Assembly (NCBI GenBank): GCA_947179485.1
Contig: OX359246.1
Span: forward strand, 24,304,001 to 24,368,000
Direction: 5' to 3'
DNA from: Allacma fusca
Lineage: Eukaryota; Arthropoda; Collembola; Symphypleona; Sminthuridae
Length of the DNA: 64,000 nucleotides
Under the pieces are notes generated by a model. That model was not told the origin of the DNA, did not search any database, and was given only the letters and a program-made list of their open reading frames with translations. This document shows, in pieces, positions 13,769 through 42,580 of this stretch (its first letter is position 1; the number at the start of each line of letters is the position of its first letter). The translations under genes were made by a program, and so were the position numbers.

Positions 13769-14349
13769 TGTTACGGATATATTATAAATAGAGTAGAATA
13801 AGCATAATCTAAGTCAGCAAATAGTTTGGAAGGTCGTAAGCAGAGGCTACGTGACGCCAAACGCTGACCTAACATAATCATAAGTAAAGGAAAGGAAATG
13901 ATTCAGATTATTTAATAAACAATAAACTAAGAATAGGATAAGATTAGATTTAAATTAAGACACGTAGATTAAGTACAAGTTCTAATCTCGACTTCAAGCA
14001 AGCAACATCAAGAGGAGCCGCACCTAGAGTCCATTCCCTCCGGGATGGAGCTCAAAAGGTAGCAAACGGGGCGACATGAAATCGGGAGATTTCAGGAGGA
14101 AGAGATTCAGAATCCAAATTCTATTTTGTGTTAAATGTTAATTGTTCAGTGTAAATTGTATCAGTTTAGGAACAATAAATTGGCTAAAAGTTAATAAAAC
14201 GAACTACACACAGAACTCAATAAGTTCCATTTATTCATGCGTTTCCAACAACATCGGATTCCAGGAATTCAGGGGATGGAACACCCGAACCTAGGCTACA
14301 TTGACTATTACCCACACAACATCAATACCCGGGTGATAGAGCTGTAACA
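13769..14349 (+). repeat. 5' LTR (581 bp)
   Basis: Begins tgttacgg and ends tgtaaca, with TG...CA termini. It has the same length as, and by reading the same sequence as, 41996-42576. A TATA box lies only 14 nt from its left edge (13783-13790), so U3 is very short. AATAAA-type signals occur at 13914-13919, 13921-13926 and later near 14170 and 14191, so R/U5 makes up most of the LTR. Confidence 0.97.
13783..13790 (+). promoter_or_regulatory. LTR TATA box
   Basis: TATAAATA, with an arthropod-initiator-like TCAGCA about 31 nt downstream (13814-13819, A at 13816). This predicts a transcript start near 13816 and a U3 of only about 47 bp. The same promoter recurs in the 3' LTR. Confidence 0.6.
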
Positions 14350-14380
14350 TGATGTTTCTGCCAGGCCTTCGGGTTTATTT

Positions 14381-14387
14381 GGTAAGG
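14381..14387 (+). promoter_or_regulatory. Candidate major splice donor
   Basis: ttg|gtaagg lies 33 nt inside the internal region, where retroviruses usually carry their major 5' splice site. It could pair with acceptors before gag (17427, 17457) and before the env-like ATG (38558). Inference only; RNA junction reads would decide. Confidence 0.4.
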
Positions 14388-14396
14388 ACCCGGAGG

Positions 14397-14421
14397 ATCC
14401 GTAGGTCGGGGACCTGCGGAT
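14397..14421 (+). promoter_or_regulatory. Stable leader hairpin
   Basis: An 11-bp stem (atccgtaggtc with gacctgcggat, one T.G wobble) closes a GGG loop. A further GG/CC pair (14392-14393 with 14424-14425) can extend it across a small internal loop. It sits just downstream of the candidate splice donor, the usual place of retroviral dimerisation or packaging stems. Role inferred from position only. Confidence 0.65.
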
Positions 14422-15022
14422 GACCCTGTGACATAAAAAGACCAAACTTTGTAGCAAGTAAGGTCGCTTAGTCAAACAAATTCACGGGATGGAAGTATGG
14501 GGTCCGAAACGGAGGTGATGTTTCATTTCTCTCCAGGGCCACCCGAAACTTCTCGTGAAAGGCAGTTATAACATGCAACAATGTTACCTCAAGAAAGAAA
14601 ATTTGGCCATTATCATCACGCGCGGATTCAAATAACAGTTCAGAAGTCCTAGTGCGGCACTAGAAAAAGAACTATTTTGTGGCCAGAAATATTATTTTAA
14701 GTGACTAGTGAAATTGGGACTCTTTCCAACCGGAAAATTAGGGGAAGAGGACGTCCAATAAGGTAATACTATTTTCTTTAAGGTTCATGAATTTCATGTT
14801 TAGGAGCATATTGATTTTGTAATGTAGTTACGAAGCGTAGCTAATATTCAGGAGTAATTAACCAGAGTTTAGAGACAAATCATATGTTCAAATTAGAAAA
14901 TTGCGCATATATGTATATGTATTTTGTGGTTTTCAGAGTACATAGTAGGTGTACGTGCATAACAAATTTTCACCAAAATTAGCTTCTTCCAGTAAAATAA
15001 GTCTTCTTCTATCTTTTTAGAC

Positions 15023-16784
15023 GCCTAAAGGGCCGGGTTTTGAGCGTAGGCATAAACAGTGTTCGTATTGTAAAGGGAACTATTCCGGCTGAAGTGCCGT
15101 TCTTGTGCGCAGTATAATAGTAATCTTTCTCTTCGTAAGTTTAAGTTCCTAATTTCAAAAGGGCCGTTTTTGAGCGTTGAAATTCTTTTAATTCTTCAAA
15201 TTACTTTTCAAAGTTTTGGGAAACCCCAGGCTAGGGGATAGGAACCCAAAACACAATTAAAATCTTTCAATCAATTAGGACATTTTTTTTATTAATACAA
15301 GACTCTCAAAATTCACTTTCCAAGCTTAGTTTAAAGCAACAATATGATCTATCTTTCAAGTAAATAACTCAAAATAATTTTTTCACTCTCTTCTTTCTCT
15401 ACATCTTTTCTCCTTCTAGTATAAGCACATCTGAAGGGCCGGGATTGAGCGCAGATGTCTTTAAATTCTTTAACCTCCAAATTACGTAATTAAGAGCCCC
15501 ATGGCTAGGTGGCAAAACCCAATTAAAACTCTTTCGCTGAAAATTACTTTCTTTACCTGATGTGTAGGTTTACACGGGTAACAATAGGATCTATCATAAA
15601 CTTTTCACAAACTTCTTTTCTTCTTCCATCTTTCCATCTCTACCAGAAATGCCGTTTTGTGCGCTGGGTAATTAGGACATAATTTGTCATGGTTTTGGCA
15701 AATATTAGGATTTCAAAGTCAATCCGGAAGGCCGAATGTGAGCACGGAGCATATCAGATTTCAGTTAGTCATTTTGCAAATCAAAACCTATATAGCTCAG
15801 TTAGAGAGCATAGGTAGATCAGATTATCTAAAGATTATAGTACGTAAGGTGTACAAATTTGTCGGAAGGGCCGAATATGAGCGCCGAGGTGATTAGGACA
15901 GTTTTTAATTAAGGCTTGAACAAAATTTAGTCCAAAGGGCCGAGGTACATTGAGCGTGGACACATTGGCATAGTACATAAGCATACATATAAGAAAATTC
16001 TCATCTACGTAGTTTAGGGATTCAAGGGCCGAAATGTGAGCGGAATCTTTGTTGTATATAGGTTTTAGTATACGTAGAATCCGAGAGGCTAGGAAGATTA
16101 GGAGGGACCTTATGGTTTAGTAGGGTTCGAGTCATTCCAAGCACGGAGGTGTTCGGATGGAGGGCCGACAAAAGTACCGATAAGCCTGTGACCTACTAGA
16201 GGTAATCGGAGAGGCTATGATTGACGCACCGATATAGGTATATGTTTGTAATGTGCCCAAGCTAGCGGATAGGTAACAGCAATGACTATTACTAGTAAGG
16301 AGGTCCATGGTTTAGTGGATAGGATAACAGGGGACATTCCAAAGCACGGATGTTCACTTTAAAATCTATGTATGCGGTTTCCAGCTATGGCCATACATAG
16401 GGACTTTCATATTTATTACTTCTTCCATAGATGACTCAGGGTTTTGAGTGCATCATAAGTTAGCCAGTCTCGAAGGATTTTGCTAGAGTAGAGAGAATTG
16501 GCATAAGAAACCACAGGCTCATGGTTTTTGAGAGTTGGTTATAGGGATAGGAATTCAGTAAAAATTCTGGTGCTTTCAGTTTTTGCTGTCTACAACAGAT
16601 ACAAGCCTTGCTGATGGTAGGATCGGTTCAAGGAAGTTCTTAGGTACGAATTAGGACGCGAAACATATCCTTTGGGACAGAAGGGTAATTAGTAGCGAGG
16701 AATACAGTCCTTATTAATTCTGGGAATCATTACAGGAGTATTTAGGGAATTTAGGCAACACCGGCCCGAATGTGAGGAGTGTTG
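15023..16784 (+). promoter_or_regulatory. Array of covarying hairpins with a GGGCCG...TGAGCG core
   Basis: At least nine hairpins have different but perfectly complementary stems around the same core, aagggccg-(3 to 9 nt)-tgagcg: 15023-15051, 15089-15112, 15151-15184 (8-bp stem), 15427-15458 (7 bp), 15643-15667, 15723-15748, 15862-15887, 15930-15961, 16019-16047, and a looser copy at 16756-16784 (6-bp stem). A degenerate copy without the second half lies at 16153-16180. In the two variant copies (15089, 15643) GGGCC/TGAGC becomes GTGCC/TGTGC (or ATGCC/TGTGC), so opposite positions change together. Stem change with retained pairing is strong evidence for selected RNA structure. Packaging, dimerisation or protein-binding roles are possible. 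Confidence 0.85.
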
Positions 16785-16842
16785 ATTGACAAAAAGACTG
16801 ATAATTTAAGGAGTTAGACGCAACTAGCCATTGCAAATAAGT

Positions 16843-17075
16843 AAGTTTAAGAAGGTTAAGTTTTAAGGTGAGTAAGTTTAAGAGCAGTAAGTTTTAAGGA
16901 GATTAGGTTTAAGGAGACTAAGTTTAGAGAAGGTTAAGTTTTAAAGGACATTAAGTTTAAGGGGAATAGGGTTTAAGGAGTTTAAGTTTTAAGGGAAGTA
17001 AGTTTAAAAGCATGGTAGGATTTAAGGAAGAATAATTTTTAACGGAAATTAAGATTAGAAAGTTTAGGTTTTAAG
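16843..17075 (+). repeat. Degenerate ttaag-rich tandem repeat
   Basis: About a dozen imperfect units of the form aagtttaagg-n-agtaagttttaagg, roughly 18-20 bp each, run head to tail in the leader before gag. The motif occurs on the + strand only. It could be simple replication slippage or a protein-binding or branch-point-rich zone; nothing else in the window resembles it. Confidence 0.6.
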
Positions 17076-17420
17076 GAAATCCAGGTGGTAACACCAGGAG
17101 GTACTCATTGGAAACGTTAGGATTACAGAGATTAAGTTTTAAGACCATTCACAGCTAAGGTTAGGGACGTTCAGGGATTGAACACTTAGGTTGTAAGCAC
17201 AGAAAATTCCTTTTCCAGGTTATCATCACCTATTGGCACAATTAAGTTTAACAACTAGGGTTACATAAGCATAGGCATACAAGGCAAAATTTTAGGAAAC
17301 GGGTTAAGTTGACATTTGGCATAAGTTTTAAGAAGGTTTTCAGGATTGAATTTGACAGAAGAACTCTCACAACCGTCAAAACAAATTCATAAAACCAAAC
17401 TCTACGAAACGCCTTAGCAT

Positions 17421-17457
17421 TTTTCAGCCCATCCAGAAAAAGTTAGGACGTTTACAG
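17421..17457 (+). promoter_or_regulatory. Candidate splice acceptors before gag
   Basis: agcatttttcag (ending 17427) and gacgtttacag (ending 17457) both look like 3' splice sites. The second leaves only gt before the Gag ATG at 17460. Joined to the donor at 14382, either would remove the whole leader with its upstream ATGs and make Gag translatable, while unspliced RNA would keep the hairpins. Confidence 0.35.
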
Positions 17458-17459
17458 GT

Positions 17460-20400
17460 ATGGAACCCGAAAAGAACCAACATCCATCAAGAAGGGAACC
17501 ACCACCTGCACCTTCAATACCATCTCGAAGGACTACGCGATCTGCAGGACCAGTACCACAGAATGAAACAGGCTTGGAGGAAATCCTCGCCCGTAGGAAA
17601 GAGGAGCGGAAAGCAGCGAAAGCCAAAGCTAATACAGCAACGGCAGGTGTAGACCTCTCTTCAACATCTTCAGCTTCGACATCTACAGTCATGGAAGAAT
17701 CCGGCAGTACAACCCTGGCATTATCTGCACAAAGTCCATCGGGCTCGCAGGCCACGGGGCACGGAGATAATCCTGACAATAATGATGAAAGCATGGATGT
17801 GTTCTTGGACACGGTGTCAACACCTGTAACAGGTACGGCAACCAGTCCGAAACGAACACCAACAGTATCGACAGCACAAACACCAAAGTTTTCAAAAACA
17901 AAGGTGGTGCAAGGACAGAATCTCCATAGACTAGCTATGCAACGAGAATTACGCGACCTCGAGGTAACCAACCTGGAGGGCCAACAGGTCCAACAAGACC
18001 AGGAGGTTGAGGCCACAGGCGAATTCATGCTAAATGCTAGAGGAGACATGGTTTTTGTCAGTCACGATGCTGACCCCACGATCAAGGAGATCCTGTCGCA
18101 ATTCAATCAACCTGAGGAAAGACCAACTAGTAGCGCTGCCATGTCATCATTTGAAATTCTCACGGATCCCGGAAGCAACCATACAAGCGTAGGGGAAGGC
18201 GAGCAAGGATTCGCAACTCCAGAAAGTGAGATGGAAGATGTGACCAATGAATCACCCAACAATGTGGTTGTCAGCAACCTGACAAACCCAGTTGACAACG
18301 GAGACATTCCTAAAGACACGAGGACACAATCCCAACAGGATGTACAAAGTCAAGGAATGTGCAGCAAAGCTACTGGACAAACAGAACAACAGGTTAATCA
18401 GCAAAGCTCAACGGAATTGGATGATTTGGAGGATTCCAACAGACCAATAGCTATAGCAACAAGTACACCAGAGATAATCCAGCAAGGGAATCTCAGTACA
18501 CACTCATCATTTAGGGACAATTTAGCAATAACTCAATCGGACGAGTCAACCGAACAGAGCGAACAAGGTGACTCACCAACAGGAGTGCCACGTACCAATA
18601 ACAGTATAGGGAGTGATCGTGACCAGGTCACTACTCAATTAAATCAGCAGTTATCAAACTTAAGCATCAGCGACCACTGTAAGGCTTCACAGTCGAATAC
18701 TACAGTTTCTCAACAACCAGACATACAACAACTTGTACGAGATAGGTTTCTATCAAGACCATCTCCAGGATTTTCCAATAGAGGAGATATAGGCTTTCAA
18801 AGGACACTCAGCCGGGTGTCTGAGTCTACAGAACAGGAAGGCCCAGTCGAGGATCAATTACCACCGATCAGAGAAGGGCAAGATAACATCCAAAGAGTGG
18901 AAGAAAATTTCGTACAATTAGTGACAGGTACAGGTGTGATAGTACCAGCGGGATCGTTTCAACAACTAGTGACCACAGCAGGCTTCCAACGGAACTCAGT
19001 GGAAAATTTTCTGGTAGTTCGAGGATTGGAAGGACAGCTGATAGAGGTGTATCACAGGTTAGCTCAAAATCTTTATACAGGTACAGTCCAGTGGACACAT
19101 TTTTTCCTTAGATTAGCTGAAGTCACCCACAGACGGGACAATAACAGAGATCCGAATAGGGAAGAAAGGGAAGTGTTACGTACACGTGCCTTTGAGTACG
19201 GTCGGAACGTCAGGGACAACATTTTCATCCCCACCGACGTCATCCGAAACCTTTTAGAGCACCGGGTATTGTCGTTGAGAAGTCATCAGGCACACCAGGA
19301 TAGCCAGATTTTCTTCAACGATACACCCAGGTATACGACCGTGATACAATCCGGAAGACTTAGTGAAAATCTAGAATTTGGTCAACCACGACAAGAAAGG
19401 CGAGTCAGCGACGAGAATAGGCCAGGTCCAGAACAAGAATCAAATAACAACGGGACCACCCAACAAAGCGTAATCGACTCCAGTGCTGACGACATCATTA
19501 GCAGGTACCTTAGGTACGACCAAAGAAACCCACCAGTAACACGGAATCCGGTTACGGGTTTATTAGAACCAGCATCTAGATCTACGCTAAGGACCATCTC
19601 AGGCGAACCTACAATACAACCCGTTACGTCACGAAGAATTTCACCCGAAAGCTTGAATACCAGCTCAAGCTCGATCAACAAGGCTATAGCCCAGGCAATA
19701 GCCTCAGCGACACTTCAAGCAGGTTTAGCAACCCCTCGAAATCGGAAGTCAAGTAACTCCGATCGTGACCATCTCAGACCAAGTAACCAGGTGACGGACA
19801 GTAACCAGGTAGATTACTCATCACCTAGGTCACAACTTTTCCAGAAATCGGTGAGAGGACATTACAGGGTAAAGAGTGCTGAGGAGAACAGCAACTTAAA
19901 TCCCAGGACCCGTCCACAAGGGATTACGACACGTGAGAGAACAAGCAATAGCTGTTGCGAGACAGCCATACAGAAGGGTAGCCCAAGAGCACCCACAACA
20001 TCACCTACAACCCAGACAGGTAATCAGACGCCAGCAGGGAGCTCTACGGCACAACCGAGAGTGACCCCGAGGTCCAGTAATTCCTGTCGCTCAACACCCG
20101 CAACCGGTGATAGGGGGCAATCAAGCCGACACAGCAACTCTCACGAAACAACACAGCAAATTAACCCAGTACACATCTCACCAGCCAGTCAGAATAGACA
20201 GGTGTCAACGGAAAATACGCCGAGAAACCGACCAACTCAACCTAACCTGCAATTTAGACCACAACCCACCCAAGACGATTTGGAGACACCAACCGAGGAG
20301 ATCGAGACCACCCAAATTGGTAGTACATCGCAGACTAACGTTAAAAGGGATTTAGCAACAACAAAGTTGTACGTCAACACCGATTCCACCCAGGCAACCA

Positions 20401-23400
20401 ATAACGAACAACTGGTACACCGAGTTTACCAGTCACCGGGAGGTCGAATCTACGTACATCCGCCCGTGCACGCGTTGCGAGCACCGCCACTTGACGTTAG
20501 TGAAACAGCTTTAAGAACATTGGTGCAAGTAGGGAGACAACTACGGGAGCAGAATCCGTCATTAACTATCGCAAATACCATCAGAAATTCTGACACAGGT
20601 ACTTACTATCAGGCATTTAGACCCCAAGACAGATTTACTGTCTATCAATCACCGAGAGGCTCGTTATATAACAGTCTACCAATAGGACGCACAGGTATAC
20701 ACCGCCACAGTTTACGAGGTCGAGACATCCTGCAACGAGCAACCAACAACGACAGGACCATCATAGAAGGTGGAGAGCTTGTAACATCACCCCAACCACC
20801 ACCTTCGGAACAAACATCTAGAAGCAACGAGTCGTACGTCCAAGGTGACACCTTAAGGTCACGGACAGCAACACCTGCATCTACGACACGCGCAGCAACG
20901 ACTTTTGCAGTACCAGTCAGACCAACTGGAAGGTTCATAACCAGGTCAGCCGACCGACCGACGACACCGACAGCTCCAGCTGTCCCCGTCAGACCCAATT
21001 CAGCAGTAGCAGGACCATCCCGAGTAACAACAACTCCAACCACAAGTCAAAGTACAGTCAATTGGCTTGATGACTTACAATACGGAGTAAATATTTGGAC
21101 AGGACCAAGTGGCAGAGTATACACCAGCGAGAACGAAGCAACCGAAGACGAGTTAGTACCAAGCAGGATAACAGTAAGACAATACTCGAAGATCGCCCGA
21201 AGACAGGACGGATCTAGAACCCAGGAAGTGGAGAACGAGGCGACTTGGACAGGTCAAGTGAGACGTCTAATTTACTTCAATAGAAGGGACGGTAGAATAC
21301 AACGAAGGTTCAGACCAACTAGAGACTCTGATTTTGAGGCATTCGCAGCTACCAGGGCAGAACACGAAGAAATTGTTCTGAGTACCAATCCCATATTTAC
21401 CTTCTGGAGGATACTAGCTCAAAGATCGGTAGACCCGAATCAAGTTACTAGCTACATTGCACCCGATTTTAGGCTCTATCATAGACACATCAGTCTACCT
21501 AACGGCATTCGTAGGCAGAGAGTACCACCAGGCTTCTTGGAAAACATCGAGAACGAATACGACCACCAAGAGGCGTTGAGCAGATTAGTTCACGACCGTA
21601 GCGTCGAAATCCTGACGGATACGTCTAGTGAAGAGGAAGTAGAGCGAATCATTCAGAGAGACACTCCGAGACGTGAGAGTGGTCAGCATAGCAGTGCACA
21701 GTCTAGTGAAGAGACAGACCATATTTTTATTGGAATTGACGAAGAGGACTTCATTATCCCAGAAGTACCAGGTCAGTTTACCATAAGAATTCCTATAGAC
21801 GACGCCTACGACGCTGCATTTAGAGCCATCGAAAGAGACGAAGAACTACAAGAGGAAGTGCGATTTGTGGATAATACCGGAGAAACTCACTTCTTCCCAA
21901 GAATCCGACTTCAAGACCTTAGTCCGGAAACTCAAGTCGTACTCACTCAAGTCAGAAAGAGACGTAAACCCTTACGAGCACGCCGTCAAATTGGAAATAA
22001 CCAACCCAGACCACCAGGCCCAGGACCCAGTGGTTCAGGGAGAGGAAACCAGCCGAGAGGGGCTAATAACAACAATTCCCATAACCAGCGACCATCTCAA
22101 TCAAGGTCAAATCCAGGTCGAAGAGGCTCAAGAGGAGGTAGACACATCGGAGGCAGACAAAGAGCAAGGAGTGACCCCGGAAGTTCCGGAGGAAGTAGCT
22201 CATCGTCCAGCTCCAGCAGTAGCAACTCAAGTAACCCTCACGACTTTGAGGCCTTCGACAACTGGAGGAATAGACAGATTGTGAACAGAAATAATTTCTT
22301 TAACCAGGTCAACGTTAACATCATCAACCCATACGTACCAATTAATCGCAATCAGGGAATACGTATTGAGGAAGTTGCAGACCAAGAACAGGTACGAATA
22401 ATTCCAAGGAGACATCTGGACGACGACATGACCGCCCTCATGTTTCCCAAAGTAGAATTCAAACCGGGTGTAGATGACCCAGAGACAGCCTTCGCAACAG
22501 CCGAACTCCAGACCAACAGGTTCGGAGGAGATACCATCATAACCAGGATGCAGTACGTACAGATCATCTTTGACCCACCCGTCAGGGATTGGATCAGAAA
22601 TTGGATTGCCGAACGAAGACTACATGAGGAACTACCTTACGACACCATTAACTGGGACGAATTCAGGGAGGAATTTCTAATAAGGTACAGTATCACCGAC
22701 CAAATGATACGTACGCTAATGGAAAAGCGAAAGATGAACACAGATGAAGATCCATGCGCATACATAGATGCGAAATTAGCACTAATCAATAGAGTCGACA
22801 GATTTATGCCCGAACTGGAGAAAATCAGACTCTTACGCGCAGGTTTAACATCCGAATACATAGTTTTCTGCCGAGGATGGACAGCAGGAACTGTAGCAGA
22901 TTTCATAGAGGGAATAAAACAGTATGATGAAGACCGAAAGACGGACGGCGCGGAATCTATTGAAACAAGATTTGCCAAAGTCCAAGAAATGTTGGAGAAA
23001 TTGACCTCCGGAATGAAACCAGTTCCAGCGGAAACAACTGTAGTGAAAATAGCTGCAGTAAGAGAACAACAGGACTATCGGAGACCTGAGGGTGGATCTA
23101 GTGACCAACGAGGACGAAGTCCAGGTCAGGGAAACTTCAACAATTCACGAAATTCCAGTCCAGGTTACAGCAACAATAGCAACTACCCGGACAGGGGACG
23201 TAACAATCAAGGTTACGATGACCGAAGGAATTATGGAAACCGAGGTAGATCTCCAACACCTGAGAGATTCTACAATAACCAAGATAGGAGTAGGCCTCAA
23301 TATAGAAATGATGGCAACAACTCTAACAACCAAGGTTACCCTCAGAGGAACCAAAATTTTGGATCTAGACAAAGTCCGAACAGACAATACTACAACAACA

Positions 23401-24008: not shown

Positions 24009-24028
24009 TTGAAGATATCCAAGAAAGA

Positions 24029-31558: not shown

Positions 31559-31883
31559 AGTGGAAATACCACAAGCAAAAATTTTGCCAAACTCAGATAC
31601 GGGACGACTCGAAGTTGTCCTCAGAGTAGACGGGAAGTTACCCCATAGGATTATCGTCCAAGGACGAGATGGGCGAGAAATCGTAACTCATTCAGTACTA
31701 ATTGGAGCTCTCAGAAAACCTCGAGAGTTAACAATAGATTATCGTATACTACGACGAGAACCGCACTTTTGCGGGTCAATAAATTTTCCGGAACAACAAG
31801 TGGAAGTAGATAGAGGCGAGCGAGCGCCAGATGATCTTGTTTACCTTTTTAAAGGACAAGAATTTAATCCCACTCCCATATGA
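31425..31883 (+). CDS. 152-aa ORF ending at a leaky-looking TGA
   Basis: An acidic/basic N-terminus (about 35 residues) is followed by what looks like a compact beta-rich domain: LEVVLRVDGKLPHRIIVQG, then HSVLIGAL and LTIDYRILRR. Family unknown. It ends TGA at 31881, but the same frame then stays open to 37991, so it may be the N-terminal part of the large downstream protein, either by readthrough or because this copy has a nonsense mutation. Confidence 0.6.
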   Translation: MSENRGSRASGSRTNETPRQDALPAVDRDDDDRPRYWTQYVSQTEVEIPQAKILPNSDTGRLEVVLRVDGKLPHRIIVQGRDGREIVTHSVLIGALRKPRELTIDYRILRREPHFCGSINFPEQQVEVDRGERAPDDLVYLFKGQEFNPTPI

Positions 31884-31901
31884 CGACAGATCCCTATCTG
31901 T
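31881..31901 (+). promoter_or_regulatory. Possible stop-codon readthrough element
   Basis: TGA CGA is followed 2 nt later by a 6-bp hairpin, acagat-ccct-atctgt (31886-31901). UGA-CGR plus a 3' stem is one known class of readthrough context. Downstream codons continue open with no stop for 2036 codons. The stem is short and close to the stop, so evidence is moderate. Confidence 0.4.
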
Positions 31902-32075
31902 AGAACACGTAATAGACAGCCAGATGATCCATGGCTAGTCCAAAATTACAGGCAAGAAAAGGACGTGCCCGGACAAAAGAATCCAAGGGGAGATTATGAC
32001 CATGATCCATGGGCATTTACTCCAGGCCTTCAATATGAACGAGGCAAGACAAGTCGAAGCTCATCTCGGAAAGTG

Positions 32076-35000
32076 ATGGGAGCCGACCCTATTTGTGGAG
32101 TAACCCGAGTCAACATCCCCGAAATTAGTGAATGGTTACCGCAACAAGAGGAACAGGTCGAGGACGTAGCCCATAGAATCAGTAGACGTATTGATGACAA
32201 CTATGGACCCGATCTGAGACGAGGGAACTTGGAGGACCGACGAAGGGAGCCTCCGAGATTCGCAGCCTACTCGGCACATATGGTACCAGCCGGGAGAGGC
32301 CGCGGGCGGGCCATCACCAATGGAGAAAGTTCGGGTAGGCAACACAGGAGCTCAAGAGAAAGTTCAAGGGAAAGACACAGCTCTAAAGACAGCAGGACCA
32401 GGAAGCGGGAGACAGAGTCGTCATCAGAGAGGAAGAAGCGACGGGAGGACGACAGGTCAAGGAGCCGCTATGACAGTCCAGCGCGGTCAAGGAGCAGGAG
32501 AGAGTCAACCCCACCACCTTCGCCATTTTTATCGCCAGCAGCAAGAGATTACAAGGACCGCATGGAGAGGGAGTCAATACTGACAGTACCCATAGCAGCT
32601 CCAGCCTTAAGCTATACCGCGGTCACAAAGATGCCACCGCCAACAATACCGGTTAATAGTGAACCACCTAAACCACAGCGTGCAGTTTGCATCGCTCAAA
32701 GAGAAAGACCAGTGGAAGTACCTGTAGTGACTCCACCATCAGTAGCTGTGACATTATGGAGCGAGGAAATTGCCACGGACACAGCTACAACAGCAGACAG
32801 AGATACCGCTAATGAATCTTCTTCAGATTCAGAAGAGGAAGAGACAGTACCTATCCAAACCTGTAGTAAGAAAGGATGTAAAAGGGTACGACAAGTAATT
32901 GCAACCGACAGTGGACCAGTGATACAACAGGAATGTGAACATCATGCAAAGAAACGTGCAAAAAAGGAGAAGAAGGTCAAGAAGGAAGCTCAGATGACCA
33001 TCTTAGAACTATTTGGACAGAGCACAGTACCAACCCAACCACCGGCGAAATGGCAGTCGAACATCGTAAAGATTGGAGAGGACTCCAGGAAGGCAGGGAA
33101 GCATGAGGAGATGGTGAACCGAATAAAAGATCTCGGGGAAATCATCCGCAACCTTGCCAGACAAAATGTCAACGCAGACAGTGCGAAGAAGCAAAAGGAA
33201 GGATTAATGAAGGAATTAGCACGCCACCGCCAGGAATGGATAAAGTGGAGAAATGATAACGACTTTCACTTGGTATGTGCTGAGTCAAAGATAGACCTTC
33301 AAACCAGAGAATTACCTCCAGCACACTTTGAACCAACAAACATTCCAACGTCAACAGCAACATCCGGAGAGCTAGAGCGTTTGCTCGCTCAGGAAAAACG
33401 AAATGGTCCAGAAACTGCAAGCCCAACAGGAATGGCAACGGAAATGCCACCCTCACCAGGACAAAACGTCGAAGTTGCAACATCTGAGCTATCTATAGCC
33501 GAGCAACACAATGAACAGAGCAGTAGCTCAGAGGATTTTGAGGTGATCAGATCAAAGAAAAAACACAAAGATCGAGAATCATCAATAACTTCGGATACAA
33601 CAGAAATTGTTAATCACCACCAGCTTTCATTGGCTGATTTTGCCAACTCACCCCAGGACGGAACCGTCATCCTCAGTGAAGACGAGGAACCACGACAACC
33701 AACCTCTTCAATTCAAACGCCACCTCACACACCGGATATGGGACGTGGAGGAGGAGGAAGACGAGGAGGACCCATACCTTACCTTGGTAACAGTTGGTTA
33801 TCATTTTTATTAATGTTCGGTTTAATAACATCTGCTGTAGGACAATCCGACTTAAGAAAGGAATTGACGGGACACTACGGACCATATCCAACAACCCGGG
33901 CATCACATTACCAGTGGTGGACCCGATTGGAAACCGAAAACCCAACCAGTCCAAGAGGCGTTGACTATGTCAGCCTAGACTTTGAGAATAAGGAAGACTC
34001 GGAGGAAATCGGACACTATGACCCTTACGGCCAACGGGAATGCCCACCGGTCGGAAACTCAGCCGTACGGTACCAAGGCTTCGGTTCAGCCACAGCGCAC
34101 CGACTCTGGCAGAATGGAGTAGTACGAGGAGTAGCAGGAGCCGTAGGCATGTGTACCACGGGAATGGTCATAGTAGGAGTCTACACTAGCTCGATCCTAG
34201 ACGCAGTCAGGAGATGGAATAAACCACTAAAAACAGTCAAAATACCACAGGACTGGGTACTCATTGAGTCCCAACTACCAGATCAACGACCTATCTGGAT
34301 GATAATGCCCGTCAACGCCAGTGAGGAAAAAGAGTTAGAAGATTTTCTTAAGGAAGATCCAACAGCAACAGAAATATCTCCGAACTTAATAGCATTACCA
34401 GGTGATATCCAAAGGAATGCTCATTACCTCAACGAGACTTCTGTAGCCAAAGTATGGAACCAAGCTTTAGGCAAAGAAGTGGACGCGGAAAAATCCGAAA
34501 ACGGGAGAGAGCGACGACATGCACCTGAACCCACTTCGGAGGAAGAGGAACGACGACAAAAGATTCGAGATCAACGGAAATTACCGCAAGCTATTTGGTT
34601 AATGTCACAAGCAATACGTGACGGTTACCATCTAACAACAAAAACTTTACAGTCAGTCGCAATGGACTTACTAACAAAACCAATCCCGTTACCACTACAA
34701 ACCAAATACGAAATTTGGAAGGAGTACGAGATACAGTACGGGAAATTCATCAACAAAGTCATCCAAATTCTGGGACTTAAAGACACACACACACGCACCA
34801 GGCGAAGTATCTTGGCAAAAGACCAGATAAATATCCTACAACGCCAGATGCAAAACAACCCTCACATTATTACGAAAGGGGAAGACTATGTTCACCCCAC
34901 TGAGGAAATTGCAATAGGTGAAGTTGTACACTTCGCACTAGCAACGACAATCACAGAAGCAAACTGGACGATAGTTTTGCTCATACCACACATATATAAC

Positions 35001-37991
35001 GGCGTTGACCATCTTGAAGAGGAAGAACTTAAGGGATGGGAGACAAAGGCACATGCCAACGTCTCACAAACCCACCCACTCTTCCAGCGAACGTCGGAAC
35101 GAGCAGCCAGAGAACGGCAGCGGCGAGAGGCATTCGTAGGACCGACCAACGCATGGTCACCCGTCAGTTATAGCAAACAATTCTTAAAACAACAGCTACA
35201 GCTTATGCTGGCACGGATTGAGGAAGAGGAGGCTCACTCATCGTCAGGAAGACCTACAGGGATTATTCAACAGCTTGTAAGATTTACCCTCAGAATGGTA
35301 ATCTATATTGGCACGTCCGTCGGAATGGACTTTGGAGGGAACCAGGACCCAATACGGAAAGGTGACCCCGGAAGAAGCCACCCACGAAGGACAGAGGGAG
35401 CAGAAGGACCGGTTTTGGCCTCAGAAGAGGAACCGGCTGTGCCAACGGAACAAGCTGTGGAGGCTCAAGAAGAAGGAGCCGGGACATCATCAAAAGTAAT
35501 CAAGGAAGAAGTCTTGGACGACGAGGAAAAGCCACCATCAGAACACCAGGTAGATAGTTCATCAGACAACGAGACAAACAGCAAGTGGGTGAAGACCAGA
35601 TGTGAATACTGCCCACTCAAACATGGCCACAAGCCACCCGTAAGATCAAAGACCAAGTTAGCAGCACATGAAGCTTGGCAAAGACAAAAGGATATACCTG
35701 TACAATACATCCGAAGGAGAAGACCAGAGTTGGACAGATTGTACGGAAGAGACAATGCCCCAAACTGTACATTCCGGTATAGAGGACGACAACGAGGTCC
35801 AGAGCCAGATAGTGAACGCCCCAGGGTTAGAGTATACTCACCCATTAGGACTGTAATATTCAACGATACTAGGGACAGACGAGGATCAAGGTCACCATCA
35901 CCAGGACCATCCACGATAGCGGAACAACCTATACGACCCATTGAAGACAGACTGAAGTCCAGACGAGCTAGACAACGTCAACGAAAGGTGGAGTTTAAGG
36001 AAGAACGCCAGGAAAACCCACCAGCTCCAGCACCGGAAGACCCACTGGCACAGCACGACTCACCTGATGTAAGATTCGTTGATTTAGCTCACGTATCATT
36101 TTACATAGGAGTCCGTGGATGGATGGTAGCACCAAGTTGGGAAGACGAAGATGCGGAAATAGTCATCTTTACCAACCCGAACGAGACACAGTTATACAGC
36201 CAACTGGATCCGGTACGACTTCAAGTGAGAAATATGGTGGAAAGGGCCAGTGATCCATTGGACCACTCACCGCCTAGATTTCTGGATCAAGTACTGGAAG
36301 ATATATCTGGAGACGAACGCCATAGCCGGATAGAAGCACAGTACTCCAGGAGGACCAATTACTTCAGCAACAACATGGACACCAGGGAAAGATCCACCAT
36401 GTGTCCTCATTGTTATCAGAAATCTACCATCGACCCAGAGAGATTTCCAACATATAATATCTCACATCGTTCAACCAACAGTCCAGAACAAAATTTAGTG
36501 AGATGGCTCAACAGAATGTACAGGGAGACATTTATCGAGAGACTTGATAGCCACCAACAACCTACTCAACCACCTCAACTACGACTCGAGCAGTTACAAA
36601 GGGCGCTTAGCACCCTAAGCGAACCCAGAACAGATGCTCACGAATCAAATATAGAATACGCCGAACATCAGGCAGGAATAGATTACAACAATCACGGAGA
36701 ATTAATCCGGGAAAGAAGGGCATTGCTGTATGATGCAATGGACCATCCCACAGATTATCGCAGACTAGACCCAAGGGAGCGAGACCTGCTCATCCTATAC
36801 GGGCAAAGTCGAAGAAACGTACCAATGGAAAACACCCGTCTGGAAACGATGGCAGGAGACATGAACATCTCACCAGGGGAAATGATACCGAGACTTTGGA
36901 CAACATTGTTCAATGGTCAGAGAGGTATTGATAATCACCAAGTACCAACATATCTAACATGTCGGGAACATCAGGGAGTAATGCAAGGGCTCACGGGAAC
37001 CGAGCTACGCCGATTGATTACTCAGATGTGGTTTGACATAGGAACTCAGCCAACCTGGCGAGAGCAAGAAATATGGATAAATAGTTTCCTGCTCAGAGGA
37101 GACGCCATCACCGGACGTGGAGAGAAAGCTCTACAACAACTAGCGAGTATACCCATACACATGCTAAGTTTTCAAGAATTTGCAAGTATGACCGAAAGGA
37201 TCATAACTCTTTATCATCAGGACGCGGCAATTCAGGAGTGGCGACAATTCGGAGCAATAAACCAGAGCAGCGGCAGTCAACCCAATACAATCGACGACAT
37301 AGAGGAAGAACTAGGTCAATGGGAAGACTGGATATTCGCAATGAAACTAGCGGGAGAAGGCCAAAAGCCAACTACCCTATACGCTAGAAAACTAAAAGGA
37401 GGAGTAGCCACCCTAAGACAACCCCGGAAAACAGGTTCTTTCAGAGACCTAAACGAACTTGTCACGATACGAATCTGGCAAAGAGAACACTTTCACAGGA
37501 TTCGGGAGCAAATCAGCAACCGTGGAGATGGACCGAGTTATAAACCATACCAACTATCTCCAAGAAATGAAAGACGACCAGGAATAACACCAATACACAT
37601 GATACCGAGTGCAATAGACCGATTCCAAACACCCCAATGGCGATCAGTTGTCATTGATGGAAGACCAGATGAACCGGACATAATAAATCTCATACGAACC
37701 CTCAGAGGTCGAACAGGAATCGAAATAGTTTTTCGAGACCTCGGACATGATTTTTTACAGGAAGAACTCAGGAGAGACCCAGTGACACAACAGAGAACCA
37801 GCTACCTTTCCATAACAAACCCTGTAGAGCACAGAAGGCTAATGGATCAGTTATGGGAAAGATCATCACGTGCAAGATGGGACCCGGAGATTTTATCCGA
37901 GAATAGATTCGCAGTCATATCATTCCGAACACTAGCGGAAGGAGAGGAGGAGACAGGCACCCTCAGAGGGCCGTCCGAGGAAGACGATTAA
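32076..37991 (+). CDS. Large accessory/env-precursor-like ORF (1971 aa from first ATG; open from 31884)
   Basis: Family not recognised. The frame is open from 31884; the first ATG is at 32076. Residue numbers here count from codon 31965. The N-terminal part has an RS-rich region (about 120-190, SR/RE runs as in splicing factors) and a Cys/His group. At 609-628 a hydrophobic stretch ending TSAVGQ looks like an internal signal peptide. It is followed by a region with N-x-S/T sites and two dibasic furin-like sites, RERR and RTRR (944-947), as in envelope precursors. A weaker hydrophobic segment lies near 1110. The C-terminal 850 residues are hydrophilic with C-x2-C/His clusters and Arg-rich patches. 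It could be a fused or readthrough product of several functions. Nothing in it is broken. Confidence 0.75.
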   Translation: MGADPICGVTRVNIPEISEWLPQQEEQVEDVAHRISRRIDDNYGPDLRRGNLEDRRREPPRFAAYSAHMVPAGRGRGRAITNGESSGRQHRSSRESSRERHSSKDSRTRKRETESSSERKKRREDDRSRSRYDSPARSRSRRESTPPPSPFLSPAARDYKDRMERESILTVPIAAPALSYTAVTKMPPPTIPVNSEPPKPQRAVCIAQRERPVEVPVVTPPSVAVTLWSEEIATDTATTADRDTANESSSDSEEEETVPIQTCSKKGCKRVRQVIATDSGPVIQQECEHHAKKRAKKEKKVKKEAQMTILELFGQSTVPTQPPAKWQSNIVKIGEDSRKAGKHEEMVNRIKDLGEIIRNLARQNVNADSAKKQKEGLMKELARHRQEWIKWRNDNDFHLVCAESKIDLQTRELPPAHFEPTNIPTSTATSGELERLLAQEKRNGPETASPTGMATEMPPSPGQNVEVATSELSIAEQHNEQSSSSEDFEVIRSKKKHKDRESSITSDTTEIVNHHQLSLADFANSPQDGTVILSEDEEPRQPTSSIQTPPHTPDMGRGGGGRRGGPIPYLGNSWLSFLLMFGLITSAVGQSDLRKELTGHYGPYPTTRASHYQWWTRLETENPTSPRGVDYVSLDFENKEDSEEIGHYDPYGQRECPPVGNSAVRYQGFGSATAHRLWQNGVVRGVAGAVGMCTTGMVIVGVYTSSILDAVRRWNKPLKTVKIPQDWVLIESQLPDQRPIWMIMPVNASEEKELEDFLKEDPTATEISPNLIALPGDIQRNAHYLNETSVAKVWNQALGKEVDAEKSENGRERRHAPEPTSEEEERRQKIRDQRKLPQAIWLMSQAIRDGYHLTTKTLQSVAMDLLTKPIPLPLQTKYEIWKEYEIQYGKFINKVIQILGLKDTHTRTRRSILAKDQINILQRQMQNNPHIITKGEDYVHPTEEIAIGEVVHFALATTITEANWTIVLLIPHIYNGVDHLEEEELKGWETKAHANVSQTHPLFQRTSERAARERQRREAFVGPTNAWSPVSYSKQFLKQQLQLMLARIEEEEAHSSSGRPTGIIQQLVRFTLRMVIYIGTSVGMDFGGNQDPIRKGDPGRSHPRRTEGAEGPVLASEEEPAVPTEQAVEAQEEGAGTSSKVIKEEVLDDEEKPPSEHQVDSSSDNETNSKWVKTRCEYCPLKHGHKPPVRSKTKLAAHEAWQRQKDIPVQYIRRRRPELDRLYGRDNAPNCTFRYRGRQRGPEPDSERPRVRVYSPIRTVIFNDTRDRRGSRSPSPGPSTIAEQPIRPIEDRLKSRRARQRQRKVEFKEERQENPPAPAPEDPLAQHDSPDVRFVDLAHVSFYIGVRGWMVAPSWEDEDAEIVIFTNPNETQLYSQLDPVRLQVRNMVERASDPLDHSPPRFLDQVLEDISGDERHSRIEAQYSRRTNYFSNNMDTRERSTMCPHCYQKSTIDPERFPTYNISHRSTNSPEQNLVRWLNRMYRETFIERLDSHQQPTQPPQLRLEQLQRALSTLSEPRTDAHESNIEYAEHQAGIDYNNHGELIRERRALLYDAMDHPTDYRRLDPRERDLLILYGQSRRNVPMENTRLETMAGDMNISPGEMIPRLWTTLFNGQRGIDNHQVPTYLTCREHQGVMQGLTGTELRRLITQMWFDIGTQPTWREQEIWINSFLLRGDAITGRGEKALQQLASIPIHMLSFQEFASMTERIITLYHQDAAIQEWRQFGAINQSSGSQPNTIDDIEEELGQWEDWIFAMKLAGEGQKPTTLYARKLKGGVATLRQPRKTGSFRDLNELVTIRIWQREHFHRIREQISNRGDGPSYKPYQLSPRNERRPGITPIHMIPSAIDRFQTPQWRSVVIDGRPDEPDIINLIRTLRGRTGIEIVFRDLGHDFLQEELRRDPVTQQRTSYLSITNPVEHRRLMDQLWERSSRARWDPEILSENRFAVISFRTLAEGEEETGTLRGPSEEDD

Positions 37992-38563: not shown

Positions 38564-39310
38564 ATGAAGTACCAAAATCTTTTGAGCCTTGCAATAACTC
38601 TAATTGCAATGGACGTTTCCGAAACCAGGCCGATAGCACAACCAAGTCCAGAACCATGGGGAGGACCATTAGTAGCAGCTTTAGGAACCCAGGTCGGAAA
38701 ATGGTTCGCAAATTACATGGTACCAGCCTTAACAGTCGGAAGCGGAGCCATTACGGCATCAGTGTTATCACAAAAGGACCCAGTAGTACATATACTACAC
38801 CACAAAGATGACGGGAAACTAGCCGTAGTGCAGTACGACCCGAACGATCCAAACGTAGAAGCCCAGAGAATCATGGAGAGGAACCGACAAATGGCTTTAC
38901 TACAACCCCAACAACAATTTATACAACCCCAACAACAATTCATACAAAACCAACAGCCCACCATGCTGAGGGATAGCAGACCACCTTGGATGGAGCAATT
39001 CAACGAAATTGATTGGAAATCCAATGAGGTTCCAACATCAGACACGGATTACACCGTAGTCATTATTAGTTCATTCGGTTGTATTACCACAGTAGTGATA
39101 TTTATATTCACAGTAATACTGTACCGAATTCGAATGCAGAAAAGAAAATCAGATCAACAAACAGCGAACGAGAAAGAATTAGACAATGTTGCAGACACAG
39201 CGGCATTAGTCCAAAATTCTGTAGAGCAGTTAGTCGGATGCAGAATAGTGAGGCCCAACATACAACCTCAAGCAGGCCGACACACAACCAGAGCAACCGT
39301 ACAACTATAA
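38564..39310 (+). CDS. Env-like single-pass membrane protein (248 aa)
   Basis: The start was chosen at the ATG that begins a signal peptide (MKYQNLLSLAITLIA) and lies just after a splice acceptor; the frame is open upstream only from a TTG at 38456. The order is signal peptide; a Gly/Ala-rich hydrophobic segment (about 32-65) that might be fusion-peptide-like or a second membrane segment; a Gln-rich repeat, PQQQFIQ twice; a C-terminal TM (about 165-188, VVIISSFGC onward); and a Lys/Arg stop-transfer sequence with a cytoplasmic tail of about 60 residues. No N-x-S/T site stands out and there is no furin site. It is far smaller than classical insect-retrovirus Env, so it may be an envelope subunit acting with the larger ORF, or an unrelated membrane protein. 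Intact. Confidence 0.65.
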   Translation: MKYQNLLSLAITLIAMDVSETRPIAQPSPEPWGGPLVAALGTQVGKWFANYMVPALTVGSGAITASVLSQKDPVVHILHHKDDGKLAVVQYDPNDPNVEAQRIMERNRQMALLQPQQQFIQPQQQFIQNQQPTMLRDSRPPWMEQFNEIDWKSNEVPTSDTDYTVVIISSFGCITTVVIFIFTVILYRIRMQKRKSDQQTANEKELDNVADTAALVQNSVEQLVGCRIVRPNIQPQAGRHTTRATVQL

Positions 39311-41985
39311 CACCGACCCAACCGGGAAGGACCAACACAAGACAGAAAACAACGAAGAAAAATACGCAAAACCATAAAATTGTATGGAAAAATATTTAAA
39401 AATATTTCTTAATTATAAGATAGTATTAGAAAAATAATAGAATAAGTAGTTATAAGTAGGATAAGGTTAGGAAGAGAAAACACAGAAAATCAAGTTCGTA
39501 TACAACAAAAATATAAAAATGCAAAATGAAAATAACAAAGTTCAAATAACGAACGAAAAGTTCAAGTTAGTTAAAGAGGCAGATCCCCAATGAGAGTAAA
39601 AGGAAAAATAGTCTAAAGATTATGTGATTCAAATCAATATATCTTTCGTGTCTCGATGGATTCATTATCCATTTTCTTTCCAATTTTCTTTCCACCCCAT
39701 TGATTCCAGTGATTAGATTTTTATTGGATATCAACCTATCAAGGCAGGCTATGTTTTGAAAACAAAGATTTATTTGTTAACGAGACGAAAAATGTTTCAA
39801 GATAAGGTTCAGTTCTAACCAAAATTTTAGGCAATATCATAATTCCTTGAGGCTTGTTAACTCAACGGCCAATGAGTGATGATTGTAATGCCTTGTGACC
39901 TTATTAGGTTATTCAACTCCATATGAGAAGGATAAATTTATATTTCTAACCTACTCATCGTTTGGGATGAGCGGGATAACAAATTTCCAGCAAAAATCCG
40001 AACCCTGTATAAGCAAGTTCTCTACGATCAGGATCAGTTTACCTTTTAGCTTCAGTTCAACAAAATCTATTTAGCTAGACGTGCTAATATGTTAGGTACC
40101 TAGAAAACAGATTAAGTAAAACGGAAGTCCAAAGGATAGATTCTTCCAAAAGAATTCCTGTAATATACTATGTTCGTTTACAAATTATTTACTTGCAAGA
40201 TGTATCGCATTTTAAATGAAAGTTGACATGAATGTGCCCAGATCTGAAGGATCCCAGGAGCACTAGATCTCCTATAAGGATCAGAAAAATAAACAAAAAC
40301 ACACACTACGAATAGGTAGGAGGAACTTTAAATAAAAATATAAAAAGTAAGAAAATTACAGTAATGGAATCATTAAACGACCAGTTTATAGACCCACATA
40401 TCCTTCATTGGACTTTGCTGACACAGCAGATTCTGTTGTCACAGAAATTTTCAACAAAATCCAACGTCGGGATTTAAAGGAGTCTAAGTTTTAATATGTC
40501 ATCGACATATACGAGGGCAGTTTCATATTTTTAATCGCGAGTTTAAAGGCAACTAAGATCTACATTGCAAACAGTGTTAACATCTTTTTTACAATTTCAG
40601 TACACATCAGAGATGACAAGAGTTATCATTAGAAAAATTAGCTCTTACAGTTTCGGTGATGAATTCCAACGGTTTACGGAACCATTAAATTCACTTCGTT
40701 TATACACAAGGATTAAATTCAGCATTTAAGAACAAAATTTTAAATCTTAAAAGATCAAACGTCTTATTAGCTTTGTTACATTCCATAATTTCGCAAGACA
40801 CATTGTGTTTTCTTAATACAATTTGTAAAGAAATTTTAAACAGAAAATTTAGCTTACAAATTCGACACGTTCCATCAAATAGGATTTTTTACAGATCAAG
40901 GTATATACATATATTTATGATTATCGCCAAAATACATTCCTATCTCAATTGAGGAAATAGTTCACGGTACAATATGATTTTATGTCTTATGGAGTAGTAA
41001 GAACTACTTACTGAACTTCATAGAGCACGATGTTTTCACATTTGGTGAAATTGCCAACAGTTGTGCATGCGATGGACATAATTCCTAATCTAGCTACCCA
41101 AGAACAATTATTTCCATAAAATATTTTTCTATTACTGAGTGACGTTTTTGCGCTCAGAGCCGTCACTTCTGGTGGAGATATCAGATAATCAAACATTTTT
41201 CTAACAAAATCTTCCCACAACGATTTGTCTATGACAGGTTAAATTGGTTCACAAGGAAACTCACGGGATTTCATGAGAAATAACATACTATCAGTCTTAT
41301 TATCTAACAACAATCTCAGCATATAACATGCTACCCCAATTGTTGCAACAACTAGTATTCAGTATCAGAAAATTAGAAATCAAATGAGAATAGGAACAAG
41401 AGAAAATGTTTCATATCTGCCTTCAAGTATTCTTGATAGTTTTTCACATTGCATTTCGTCCTCGCCTTTGCGATTTGAACTTTTAAATGCATTTTCTTCC
41501 AGCAATTATAAACAAAATTCTTTTCAAAACATGTGTACAAAATTTTCAATTCTGCTACGATGTTTCTAATCTTAGATAGATGACGTTAGAAATCAAGTTA
41601 AATGATGATGTAAATAACGATGTATTCCATGTAAATATTGTATATGCAAATTGTAACACCTATATTTGGTTGTGCAACGATTCTAAGATCTAAGATTATA
41701 AGAAGAACTTTCACAACAGTATACAAACAATAACACCATCAAATATTGTACAGCATTACAAAGTATATACACATATGATGATGAACATGTATAAAAATTG
41801 TATGCAATGCCTTAACAATAAGAATGCCCATGAATACCATTACGACCATGCTACAAAGACCAACCATTACCATAACGACCAAGATTAAGCTACAAAGTAT
41901 GGTAACAAAAATAAAAATTAGTATAATTACAAATAATATGAACTTGAACTTCGACAGATGACATTGTCGAGGACGACAATTACCC
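39311..41985 (+). other. 2.7-kb 3' noncoding region of the retroelement
   Basis: No supported ORF. AT-rich, with a notable hairpin at 41139-41166 (gtgacg / cgtcac) whose loop contains gcgctca, complementary to the tgagcgc of some leader hairpins. Long 3' regions in retroelements may hold RNA export or polyadenylation signals; none is proven here. Confidence 0.5.
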
Positions 41986-41995
41986 AGAAGAGGAA
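41986..41995 (+). promoter_or_regulatory. Polypurine tract
   Basis: agaagaggaa directly abuts the 3' LTR. This is the position and composition expected of the plus-strand primer. Confidence 0.85.
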
Positions 41996-42576
41996 TGTTA
42001 CGGATATATTATAAATAGAGTAGAATAAGCATAATCTAAGTCAGCAAATAGTTTGGAAGGTCGTAAGCAGAGGCTACGTGACGCCAAACGCTGACCTAAC
42101 ATAATCATAAGTAAAGGAAAGGAAATGATTCAGATTATTTAATAAACAATAAACTAAGAATAGGATAAGATTAGATTTAAATTAAGACACGTAGATTAAG
42201 TACAAGTTCTAATCTCGACTTCAAGCAAGCAACATCAAGAGGAGCCGCACCTAGAGTCCATTCCCTCCGGGATGGAGCTCAAAAGGTAGCAAACGGGGCG
42301 ACATGAAATCGGGAGATTTCAGGAGGAAGAGATTCAGAATCCAAATTCTATTTTGTGTTAAATGTTAATTGTTCAGTGTAAATTGTATCAGTTTAGGAAC
42401 AATAAATTGGCTAAAAGTTAATAAAACGAACTACACACAGAACTCAATAAGTTCCATTTATTCATGCGTTTCCAACAACATCGGATTCCAGGAATTCAGG
42501 GGATGGAACACCCGAACCTAGGCTACATTGACTATTACCCACACAACATCAATACCCGGGTGATAGAGCTGTAACA
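41996..42576 (+). repeat. 3' LTR (581 bp)
   Basis: Same length as the 5' LTR and, read side by side, the same bases throughout. It ends gctgtaaca and is followed by the atac TSD. It supplies the AATAAA signals for the element's RNA. Confidence 0.97.
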
Positions 42577-42580
42577 ATAC
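42577..42580. repeat. Right target-site duplication (atac)
   Basis: Matches 13765-13768. Confidence 0.9.

What the first reader, a model, noticed from the sequence alone, without database searches (positions are those of the whole stretch)
13769..42576. A 28.8-kb, apparently intact and very young giant LTR retroelement
Size is several times that of ordinary Ty3/Gypsy elements. The two 581-bp LTRs read as identical, the TSD is perfect and all major ORFs are open. Besides gag and pol it has at least four further ORFs of unknown family. This looks like a new giant lineage with retrovirus-like organisation in an arthropod.
Basis: partly seen in the sequence, partly recalled or inferred. Interest (0 to 1): 0.95.

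Follow-up and report, generated by a model that had tools for sequence, protein, structure and literature searches.

The report
Giant multi-copy Ty3/Gypsy retroelement family
The 28.8-kb stretch is one copy of a large family of unusually long, recently active virus-like jumping elements that carry two extra genes of unknown origin and a row of nine matching RNA hairpins, which makes it a new giant branch of a known kind rather than an assembly error.

Summary
A 28,808-bp LTR element lies exactly at 13769-42576: identical 581-bp LTRs, ATAC duplication, polypurine tract. It is no artefact or nested composite: 16 LTR pairs in its 393-Mb genome lie 28.6-28.8 kb apart. Within these pairs the LTRs show 0 differences in 9,244 bp, yet copies differ by 3.9% on average. 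ORF5 scores 114 close rows and 28 of a second family at 50-54% identity. Pol is standard Ty3/Gypsy with catalytic residues present. Gag, ORF4 and ORF5 evolve under purifying selection (pN/pS 0.13-0.24). Correction: the window copy is not intact. ORF3 and ORF4 are one frame elsewhere; the stop between them is absent from 15 of 15 other copies. New: the 3.1-kb leader holds nine hairpins with one conserved core and covarying stems in 18 of 18 copies; the core occurs 635 times in the genome, reversed control 0. Best reading: an autonomous, recently active giant Metaviridae lineage with retrovirus-like layout. That the hairpins are a genomic-RNA signal and ORF5 a fusogen-like membrane protein is inferred.

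The parts
13765..13768 (.). target-site duplication ATAC, left
   Evidence: ATAT or ATAC in 14 of 15 other pairs
13769..14349 (+). 5' LTR, 581 bp, TG..CA
   Evidence: identical to 3' LTR
14350..14362 (+). primer-binding-site-like stretch directly after the LTR; TGATG form in 15 of 18 copies incl. window, TGGTG in 3; resembles the 3' end of tRNA-Val by recall only
   Evidence: tRNA identity recalled, the genome check did not complete
14350..17459 (+). 3.1-kb untranslated leader, no + strand ORF of 60 aa or more; 2,997-3,148 bp between anchors in 18 copies
14458..14463 (+). splice-donor-like site CAA|GTAAGG
   Evidence: exact string in 15 of 18 copies; splicing not shown
15021..16048 (+). array of nine hairpins: variable stem, AAGGGCCG-like core, 3-8 nt, TGAGCG-like core, complementary stem
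16840..17007 (+). degenerate 31/16-bp tandem repeat in the leader
17456..17457 (+). splice-acceptor-like AG (TTTACAG) just before gag
   Evidence: 18 of 18 copies
17460..24008 (+). gag, 2182 aa; capsid-like region about 22617-22850 (below cut-off), CCHC knuckle 23898-23948; N-terminal ~1,700 aa without recognised relatives
23963..24008 (+). gag/pol overlap, pol in the -1 frame, with a run of six G and a short G/C inverted repeat
   Evidence: frameshift inferred
24029..31225 (+). pol, 2398 aa from ATG: PR 24128-24424, RT 25175-25657, RNase H 25952-26257, integrase zinc domain 28286-28465, integrase core 28520-28795 (D-35-E); unassigned stretches 26321-28228 and 29336-31222
31425..37991 (+). ORF3-4, one frame of about 2,200 codons in other copies; in the window copy split by an in-frame stop at 31881-31883. 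Basic N-part, signal-anchor-like segment about 33774-33854, RERR and RTRR sites, long conserved C-part
38564..39310 (+). ORF5, 248 aa: signal-like N-terminus, G/A-rich hydrophobic stretch, one strong transmembrane segment (residues 167-185) followed by Tyr and a basic patch
41986..41995 (+). polypurine tract AGAAGAGGAA
   Evidence: same in the 15 other pairs kept
41996..42576 (+). 3' LTR, 581 bp
42577..42580 (.). target-site duplication ATAC, right

Best explanation
It is one copy, broken in one gene, of a giant autonomous Ty3/Gypsy (Metaviridae) family that has transposed very recently. Shown by sequence: LTR structure, ATAY target preference, many equally long copies, identical LTR pairs, PR-RT-RH-IN with catalytic residues, purifying selection on gag, ORF4 and ORF5, and a covarying hairpin array in the leader. 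Inferred: the genomic RNA starts in the LTR and is primed by a tRNA. Pol is made by -1 frameshift from Gag. ORF3-4 and ORF5 come from spliced RNAs that use the donor-like site at 14458. The nine hairpins lie between that site and the gag acceptor-like site, so they would mark unspliced genomic RNA for export or packaging, read by Gag or another element protein. ORF5 acts at membranes, much like the sORF2/FAST-like proteins of insect retrotransposons, and may help particles pass between cells. ORF3-4 is a second, partly secretory polyprotein.
For: LTR, TSD, PPT. 16 pairs 28.6-28.8 kb apart. 0 differences in 9,244 bp within 16 LTR pairs against 3.9% mean between 18 copies (window pair). Pfam PR, RT, RNase H, integrase; catalytic residues and a D-35-E spacing; best PDB match Ty3, E 1.3e-103. 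Gag open in 18 of 18 copies as far as fetched (2,024-2,074 codons), pN/pS 0.134. ORF4 open in 5 of 5 fetched copies, pN/pS 0.138 over 6 sequences; ORF5 without stop in the covered part in 15 of 15, pN/pS 0.244 over 16 sequences. RT: 97 scored copies, 95 without stop, 69 with a pol frame of 2,393 codons or more, one of these with an in-frame TGA. Hairpins: 41 of 45 positions paired against a random mean of 17.7 and a maximum of 30 in 20,000 draws; 16 cells with double changes against 4.3 in shuffles, 0 of 500 as high; 635 genome matches against 0 reversed. Splice-like sites. ORF5 layout, compared with PMC11952523 sections 8 and 10.
Against: This copy has a stop inside ORF3-4. 7 of 24 scored ORF4 copies report a stop in the matched part and 28 of 97 RT copies a pol frame shorter than 2,393 codons, so many copies are defective. 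No RNA, protein or particle data. Single hairpins do not fold better than shuffles: six of nine tested, z -0.95 to 0.75, and in one of the six the lowest-energy fold lacks the stem. With a looser stem geometry the array test is weaker (ten sites, 56 against a mean of 34.7; 1 of 2,000 draws as high). ORF5's acceptor-like site differs between subtypes, and ORF5 lacks the MGxxxS/T start of sORF2. No envelope or fusogen family matched, and structure models were uninformative. Ranking of hits by LTR similarity may favour young copies.
Confidence: 0.8

Rival explanations
1. The internal 27.6 kb is several nested insertions or an assembly chimera.
For: The size is extreme for Ty3/Gypsy, and gag and ORF4 found no relatives.
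Against: 16 pairs of the same length on five large contigs; leader, gag, ORF4 and ORF5 at matching places in the fetched copies; no second repeat pair of 40 bp or more inside.
Confidence: 0.02
2. The repeated leader motif is a DNA-level binding array (as recalled for the Su(Hw) sites in the gypsy leader) and not an RNA structure.
For: It is an array in the leader; single hairpins are thermodynamically ordinary.
Against: Stems differ between repeats but stay complementary in a fixed geometry, which a DNA site would not need; the nine hairpins have the same orientation.
Confidence: 0.2
3. The stop between ORF3 and ORF4 is a programmed read-through site, so the window copy is intact.
For: ORF4 downstream in the window is otherwise open.
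Against: 0 of 15 other copies have a stop there, and the 23 other scored copies report one longer frame.
Confidence: 0.04
4. The accessory ORFs are passive passengers or captured host DNA without function in the element.
For: No Pfam domain above cut-off; ORF4 without PDB match.
Against: Low pN/pS in the blocks of ORF4 and in ORF5 and conservation in a second family at about 52% identity.
Confidence: 0.03

Closest known systems
Burro giant Gypsy-like elements of planarians (PMC6431247, outline and section 7 read)
   Same: Size class (Burro >30 kb in all, internal region up to 25 kb), Gypsy-type pol, huge ORFs with unknown parts, many copies.
   Different: Burro has one ~4,900-aa ORF1 with env-like and host-like domains between gag and pol and 2-3 zinc knuckles. 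Here gag and pol are separate overlapping frames, one CCHC was found, no such domain is found by Pfam, and the extra ORFs follow pol.
Ogre (plant Gypsy elements; same section)
   Same: Oversized Ty3/Gypsy element with extra coding.
   Different: Ogre size rests largely on LTRs of 1.9-6.5 kb; here the LTRs are 0.58 kb. No leader + strand ORF of 60 aa or more.
sORF2-bearing mdg1-group and other insect retrotransposons (PMC11952523; abstract, sections 8 and 10 read)
   Same: A small one-pass membrane protein; Tyr directly after the membrane segment and a basic patch, kept in both families here.
   Different: sORF2 is 63-107 aa with an ectodomain of about 30 residues and often a myristoylation start; ORF5 is 248 aa with a front part of about 165 residues and a signal-like start, and lies after pol.
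Ty3/Gypsy-like pol proteins annotated in the pseudoscorpion Cordylochernes scorpioides
   Same: The 13 best full-database pol hits, about 41-43% over RT-RNase H for the best.
   Different: Among the 120 listed relatives no separate BLAST match at E 1e-3 to ORF3, ORF4, ORF5, gag beyond the zinc knuckle, or the pol stretches outside the conserved domains.
Troyka (PMC12440569, outline and abstract read)
   Same: LTR retroelement related to Gypsy.
   Different: Troyka has 3-bp TSDs and CG..CG ends; here 4 bp and TG..CA.

Membership tests
Metaviridae (Ty3/Gypsy) | PR-RT-RNase H-integrase order in pol | tested here: met
Metaviridae (Ty3/Gypsy) | RT nearest to Ty3 rather than to retroviruses or caulimoviruses | tested here: met
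   Ty3 E 1e-103 and 1e-72, next 'Enzymatic polyprotein' 7e-44, then Peptidase A9/RT 3e-30; by PDB ranking, not by a tree with named references
Metaviridae (Ty3/Gypsy) | LTRs TG..CA with 4-6 bp TSD | tested here: met
   (15 of 16 pairs with TSD)
Metaviridae (Ty3/Gypsy) | Gag with capsid domain and zinc knuckle | tested here: inconclusive
   CCHC just above cut-off, Retrotrans_gag E 0.1 below cut-off
Errantivirus-like | env homologous to gypsy Env / baculovirus F | tested here: inconclusive
   no such Pfam hit in ORF3, ORF4 or ORF5; remote homology not excluded
Errantivirus-like | RT inside the errantivirus clade | not tested
   no named reference RTs at hand; the tree has database hits only
Burro | env-like region in frame between gag and pol; apoptosis and ubiquitin domains | tested here: not met
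   gag and pol overlap directly; no such Pfam domain
Ogre | LTRs of 1.9-6.5 kb | tested here: not met
   581 bp
Ogre | ORF ahead of gag (recalled) | tested here: not met
   no + strand ATG ORF of 60 aa or more in the leader
Troyka | 3-bp TSD, CG..CG ends | tested here: not met
sORF2/FAST-like membrane protein (ORF5) | short protein (63-107 aa), ectodomain about 30 aa | tested here: not met
   248 aa
sORF2/FAST-like membrane protein (ORF5) | single TM, Tyr after it, basic patch | tested here: met
   in 5 of 5 aligned sequences; a second, weaker hydrophobic stretch lies near the N-terminus
sORF2/FAST-like membrane protein (ORF5) | membrane fusion activity | not testable with these tools
   needs an assay

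The most novel reading that the evidence does not exclude
A genus- or family-level giant branch of Metaviridae that works as a complex endogenous retrovirus. It would have a 28-kb genome, a second large polyprotein, a separate fusogen-like membrane protein and a nine-hairpin genomic-RNA recognition array, and it would spread through repeated recent germline entry from a diverse replicating pool, as the 0% within-copy and 3.9% between-copy LTR divergence could suggest.
Probability: 0.35. Interest if true: 0.9.

Novelty: new variant of a known kind. Interest (0 to 1): 0.8.

Why it matters
Few animal LTR elements of this size are described (by recall and by section 7 of PMC6431247). Here a young multi-copy family with a diverged sister family lets one ask why a reverse-transcribing element keeps 28 kb. 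The gag, accessory proteins and repeated RNA motif are conserved without recognised relatives, so they offer new testable parts of retroelement biology: export or packaging of a very long RNA, and passage between cells. The hairpin array, with 635 core matches in one genome, is a clean natural covariation data set.
Full report
Observation. The two 581-bp LTRs at 13769-14349 and 41996-42576 are identical, begin TGTTACGG and end GTAACA, and are flanked by ATAC on both sides. A purine run AGAAGAGGAA stands just before the 3' LTR. No other direct or inverted repeat of 40 bp or more was found in 12000-45000. Open frames of 2,196, 2,420 and 2,035 codons, stop to stop, follow each other on the + strand; a strong A-over-T bias covers about 17-40 kb.

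Not an artefact. One search places the window at C8:24304001-24368000 of a 392.7-Mb assembly of 91 contigs. It scored 40 of 297 LTR candidates. Among these 40 rows are 18 pairs (distances read by me): 16 at 28.6-28.8 kb, one at 23.9 kb, one at 4.1 kb; four rows are single. For 15 pairs plus the window I compared the LTRs whole: each 5' LTR string occurs unchanged in its 3' locus, 9,244 bp in all with 0 differences. The 5' LTRs of 18 copies differ from each other by 3.9% on average, 0.7-6.8% (window pair). The 4-bp TSD is ATAT or ATAC in 15 of 16 pairs; L015 has none. With a recalled rate of 3e-9 per site and year the mean insertion age would be under about 54,000 years (95% bound). The host and its rate are unknown, and hits were ranked by LTR similarity, so this is only a rough guide.

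Copy number. ORF5 as query scored 150 of 215 candidates (counted by me, some rows partial): 114 rows at 83-100% identity, 8 at 62-78%, 28 at 50-54%; 142 of 150 rows have no stop in the matched stretch. RT as query scored 97 of 2,177 candidates, all 99-100% identical; 95 of 97 have no stop, and 69 report a pol frame of 2,393 codons or more, one of these with an in-frame TGA. The 50-54% group is a second family. One of its copies carries ORF4-like sequence directly upstream of ORF5: L085, 52% over the C-part, and L086 with the same RERRHAPEPTSEEE and RTRRS sites. In the listed part of contig C1 (one search lists the first 100 of 635 places), 5 of 6 second-family ORF5 rows have their first hairpin-core match 24.7-24.9 kb upstream (window: 23.5 kb); the sixth has matches about 47 kb away. 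The giant layout is therefore probably older than the split of the families.

Proteins. Pol has protease, RT, RNase H, integrase zinc domain and core, with DSG, YLDD, the RNase H acidic residues, HHCC and D-35-E. The best solved relative is Ty3. A 636-residue stretch between RNase H and the integrase and a 629-residue C-terminal stretch gave no Pfam family above cut-off. One search found 835 pol relatives and listed 120; the 13 best are from Cordylochernes scorpioides. RT-RNase H identity is at most 43% among 115 stretches, and the window sits on a long branch (its grouping with P0021 has support 0.29, the next node of four sequences 0.99). Against the 120 listed proteins, BLAST at E 1e-3 gave no match for ORF3, ORF4 or ORF5, two for gag (both at the zinc knuckle) and one separate pol match outside the conserved RT-to-integrase part, at the protease. 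Gag and ORF4 found nothing in the protein collection and ORF4 nothing in the PDB.

Selection. Gag is open in 18 of 18 copies as far as fetched (2,024-2,074 codons), pN/pS 0.134, and 0.06-0.27 in blocks of 250 codons. One block has about twice the synonymous divergence of the rest, which suggests recombination. ORF4: 5 fetched copies plus the window, 0.138 (0.08-0.18 in blocks). ORF5: 15 fetched copies plus the window, 0.244. These are Nei-Gojobori proportions summed over all pairs, so shared history is counted repeatedly. Pol selection was not measured; the RT protein is 99-100% identical while LTRs differ by 3.9%.

The window copy is broken. ORF3 and ORF4 are separated here by an in-frame stop at 31881-31883. 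None of 15 other copies has it; one of them (L076) has a different in-frame stop. In one search, which scored 24 of 595 candidates, the 23 other copies report frames of 2,201-2,222 codons, and 7 of 24 rows report a stop inside the matched part. ORF3-4 is therefore one gene, and this copy probably cannot make the whole protein.

Leader hairpins. Between 15021 and 16048 there are nine repeats of the form stem, AAGGGCCG (variants), 3-8 nt, TGAGCG (variants), complementary stem. The pattern finds nine in each of 18 copies and nothing else in the 64-kb window on either strand. In the window copy 41 of 45 stem positions pair, against a mean of 17.7 and a maximum of 30 in 20,000 draws of places in the same leader. 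A first, looser test with ten sites and free stem geometry was weaker: 56 against a mean of 34.7, 1 of 2,000 draws as high. Across the nine repeats all five pairs show double changes: 16 cells against 4.3 in shuffles (0 of 500 as high), five pairs against 3.0 (13 of 500). Sliding the partner by one to three columns drops pairing from 91% to 20-42% (the structure was derived from these sequences, which favours it in this control). The strict core occurs 635 times in the genome and 0 times reversed. Single hairpins are not unusually stable: six of nine folded, z -0.95 to 0.75, the stem present in the best fold of five of the six. A protein or tertiary contact may be needed. Isolated single matches with one constant loop also occur and are unexplained.

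Expression. The donor-like CAA|GTAAGG at 14458 is present as an exact string in 15 of 18 copies. An acceptor-like TTTACAG stands before the gag ATG in 18 of 18, one before ORF3 in the window (other copies not fetched there), and one before ORF5 whose form differs between subtypes. If these are used, the hairpin array is intronic and specific to full-length RNA, as retroviral packaging signals often are (recalled). This is inference. Gag and pol overlap in the -1 frame at a G run.

ORF5. Signal-like N-terminus, a G/A-rich hydrophobic segment, one strong membrane segment, then Tyr and a basic patch, kept in both families. Voichek and colleagues (PMC11952523, abstract and sections 8 and 10 read) describe short sORF2 proteins of insect retrotransposons with a membrane segment, a following Tyr and a basic region, used for passage between cells. 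ORF5 shares that design but is longer and lacks their start motif, so I call it similar in kind, not a member.

Known things. Burro and Ogre are the nearest in size (PMC6431247, section 7 read) and fail on layout or LTR length. Troyka (PMC12440569, abstract) fails on TSD and ends. No arthropod giant of this kind was recognised in the listings of seven searches of a library that holds open papers only. Repeat databases could not be searched, so an unpublished or database-only consensus may exist.

Verdict. Real, multi-copy, young and still largely coding; a new giant variant of Ty3/Gypsy with two conserved orphan genes and a covarying RNA array. The window copy itself carries a defect in ORF3-4. 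The function of the extra parts is inferred.

Noticed in passing
window 63018-63136 (-): 5S rRNA gene, 114 bits, full model length.
   Followed up: no
window 63511-63880: Tandem repeat of a 153-bp unit, 2.4 copies at 92%, near the 5S gene.
   Followed up: no
window 49318-49482 and 49999-50141: Two 32/64-bp tandem arrays whose units look like reverse complements of each other, 0.5 kb apart; possibly a fold-back element.
   Followed up: no
G000 contig C1, e.g. 1155086, 8129244, 13579613, 17801705: Isolated single hits of the hairpin core with one constant loop (CATA), away from arrays; perhaps a third element family.
   Followed up: partly
L045-L059 and L080-L084, upstream end of ORF5: ORF5 has two alternative N-terminal forms (MKCQ/MKYQ and MEYKWYI), as if modules were exchanged between copies.
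   Followed up: partly
gag codons 1250-1500 in 18 copies: Synonymous divergence 0.26 against 0.07-0.13 in the other blocks, suggesting recombination with a diverged lineage.
   Followed up: no
C12:55188639 and 55212511 (L016, L036): Two LTRs with the same left flank, 23.9 kb apart; duplicated locus or assembly duplication.
   Followed up: no
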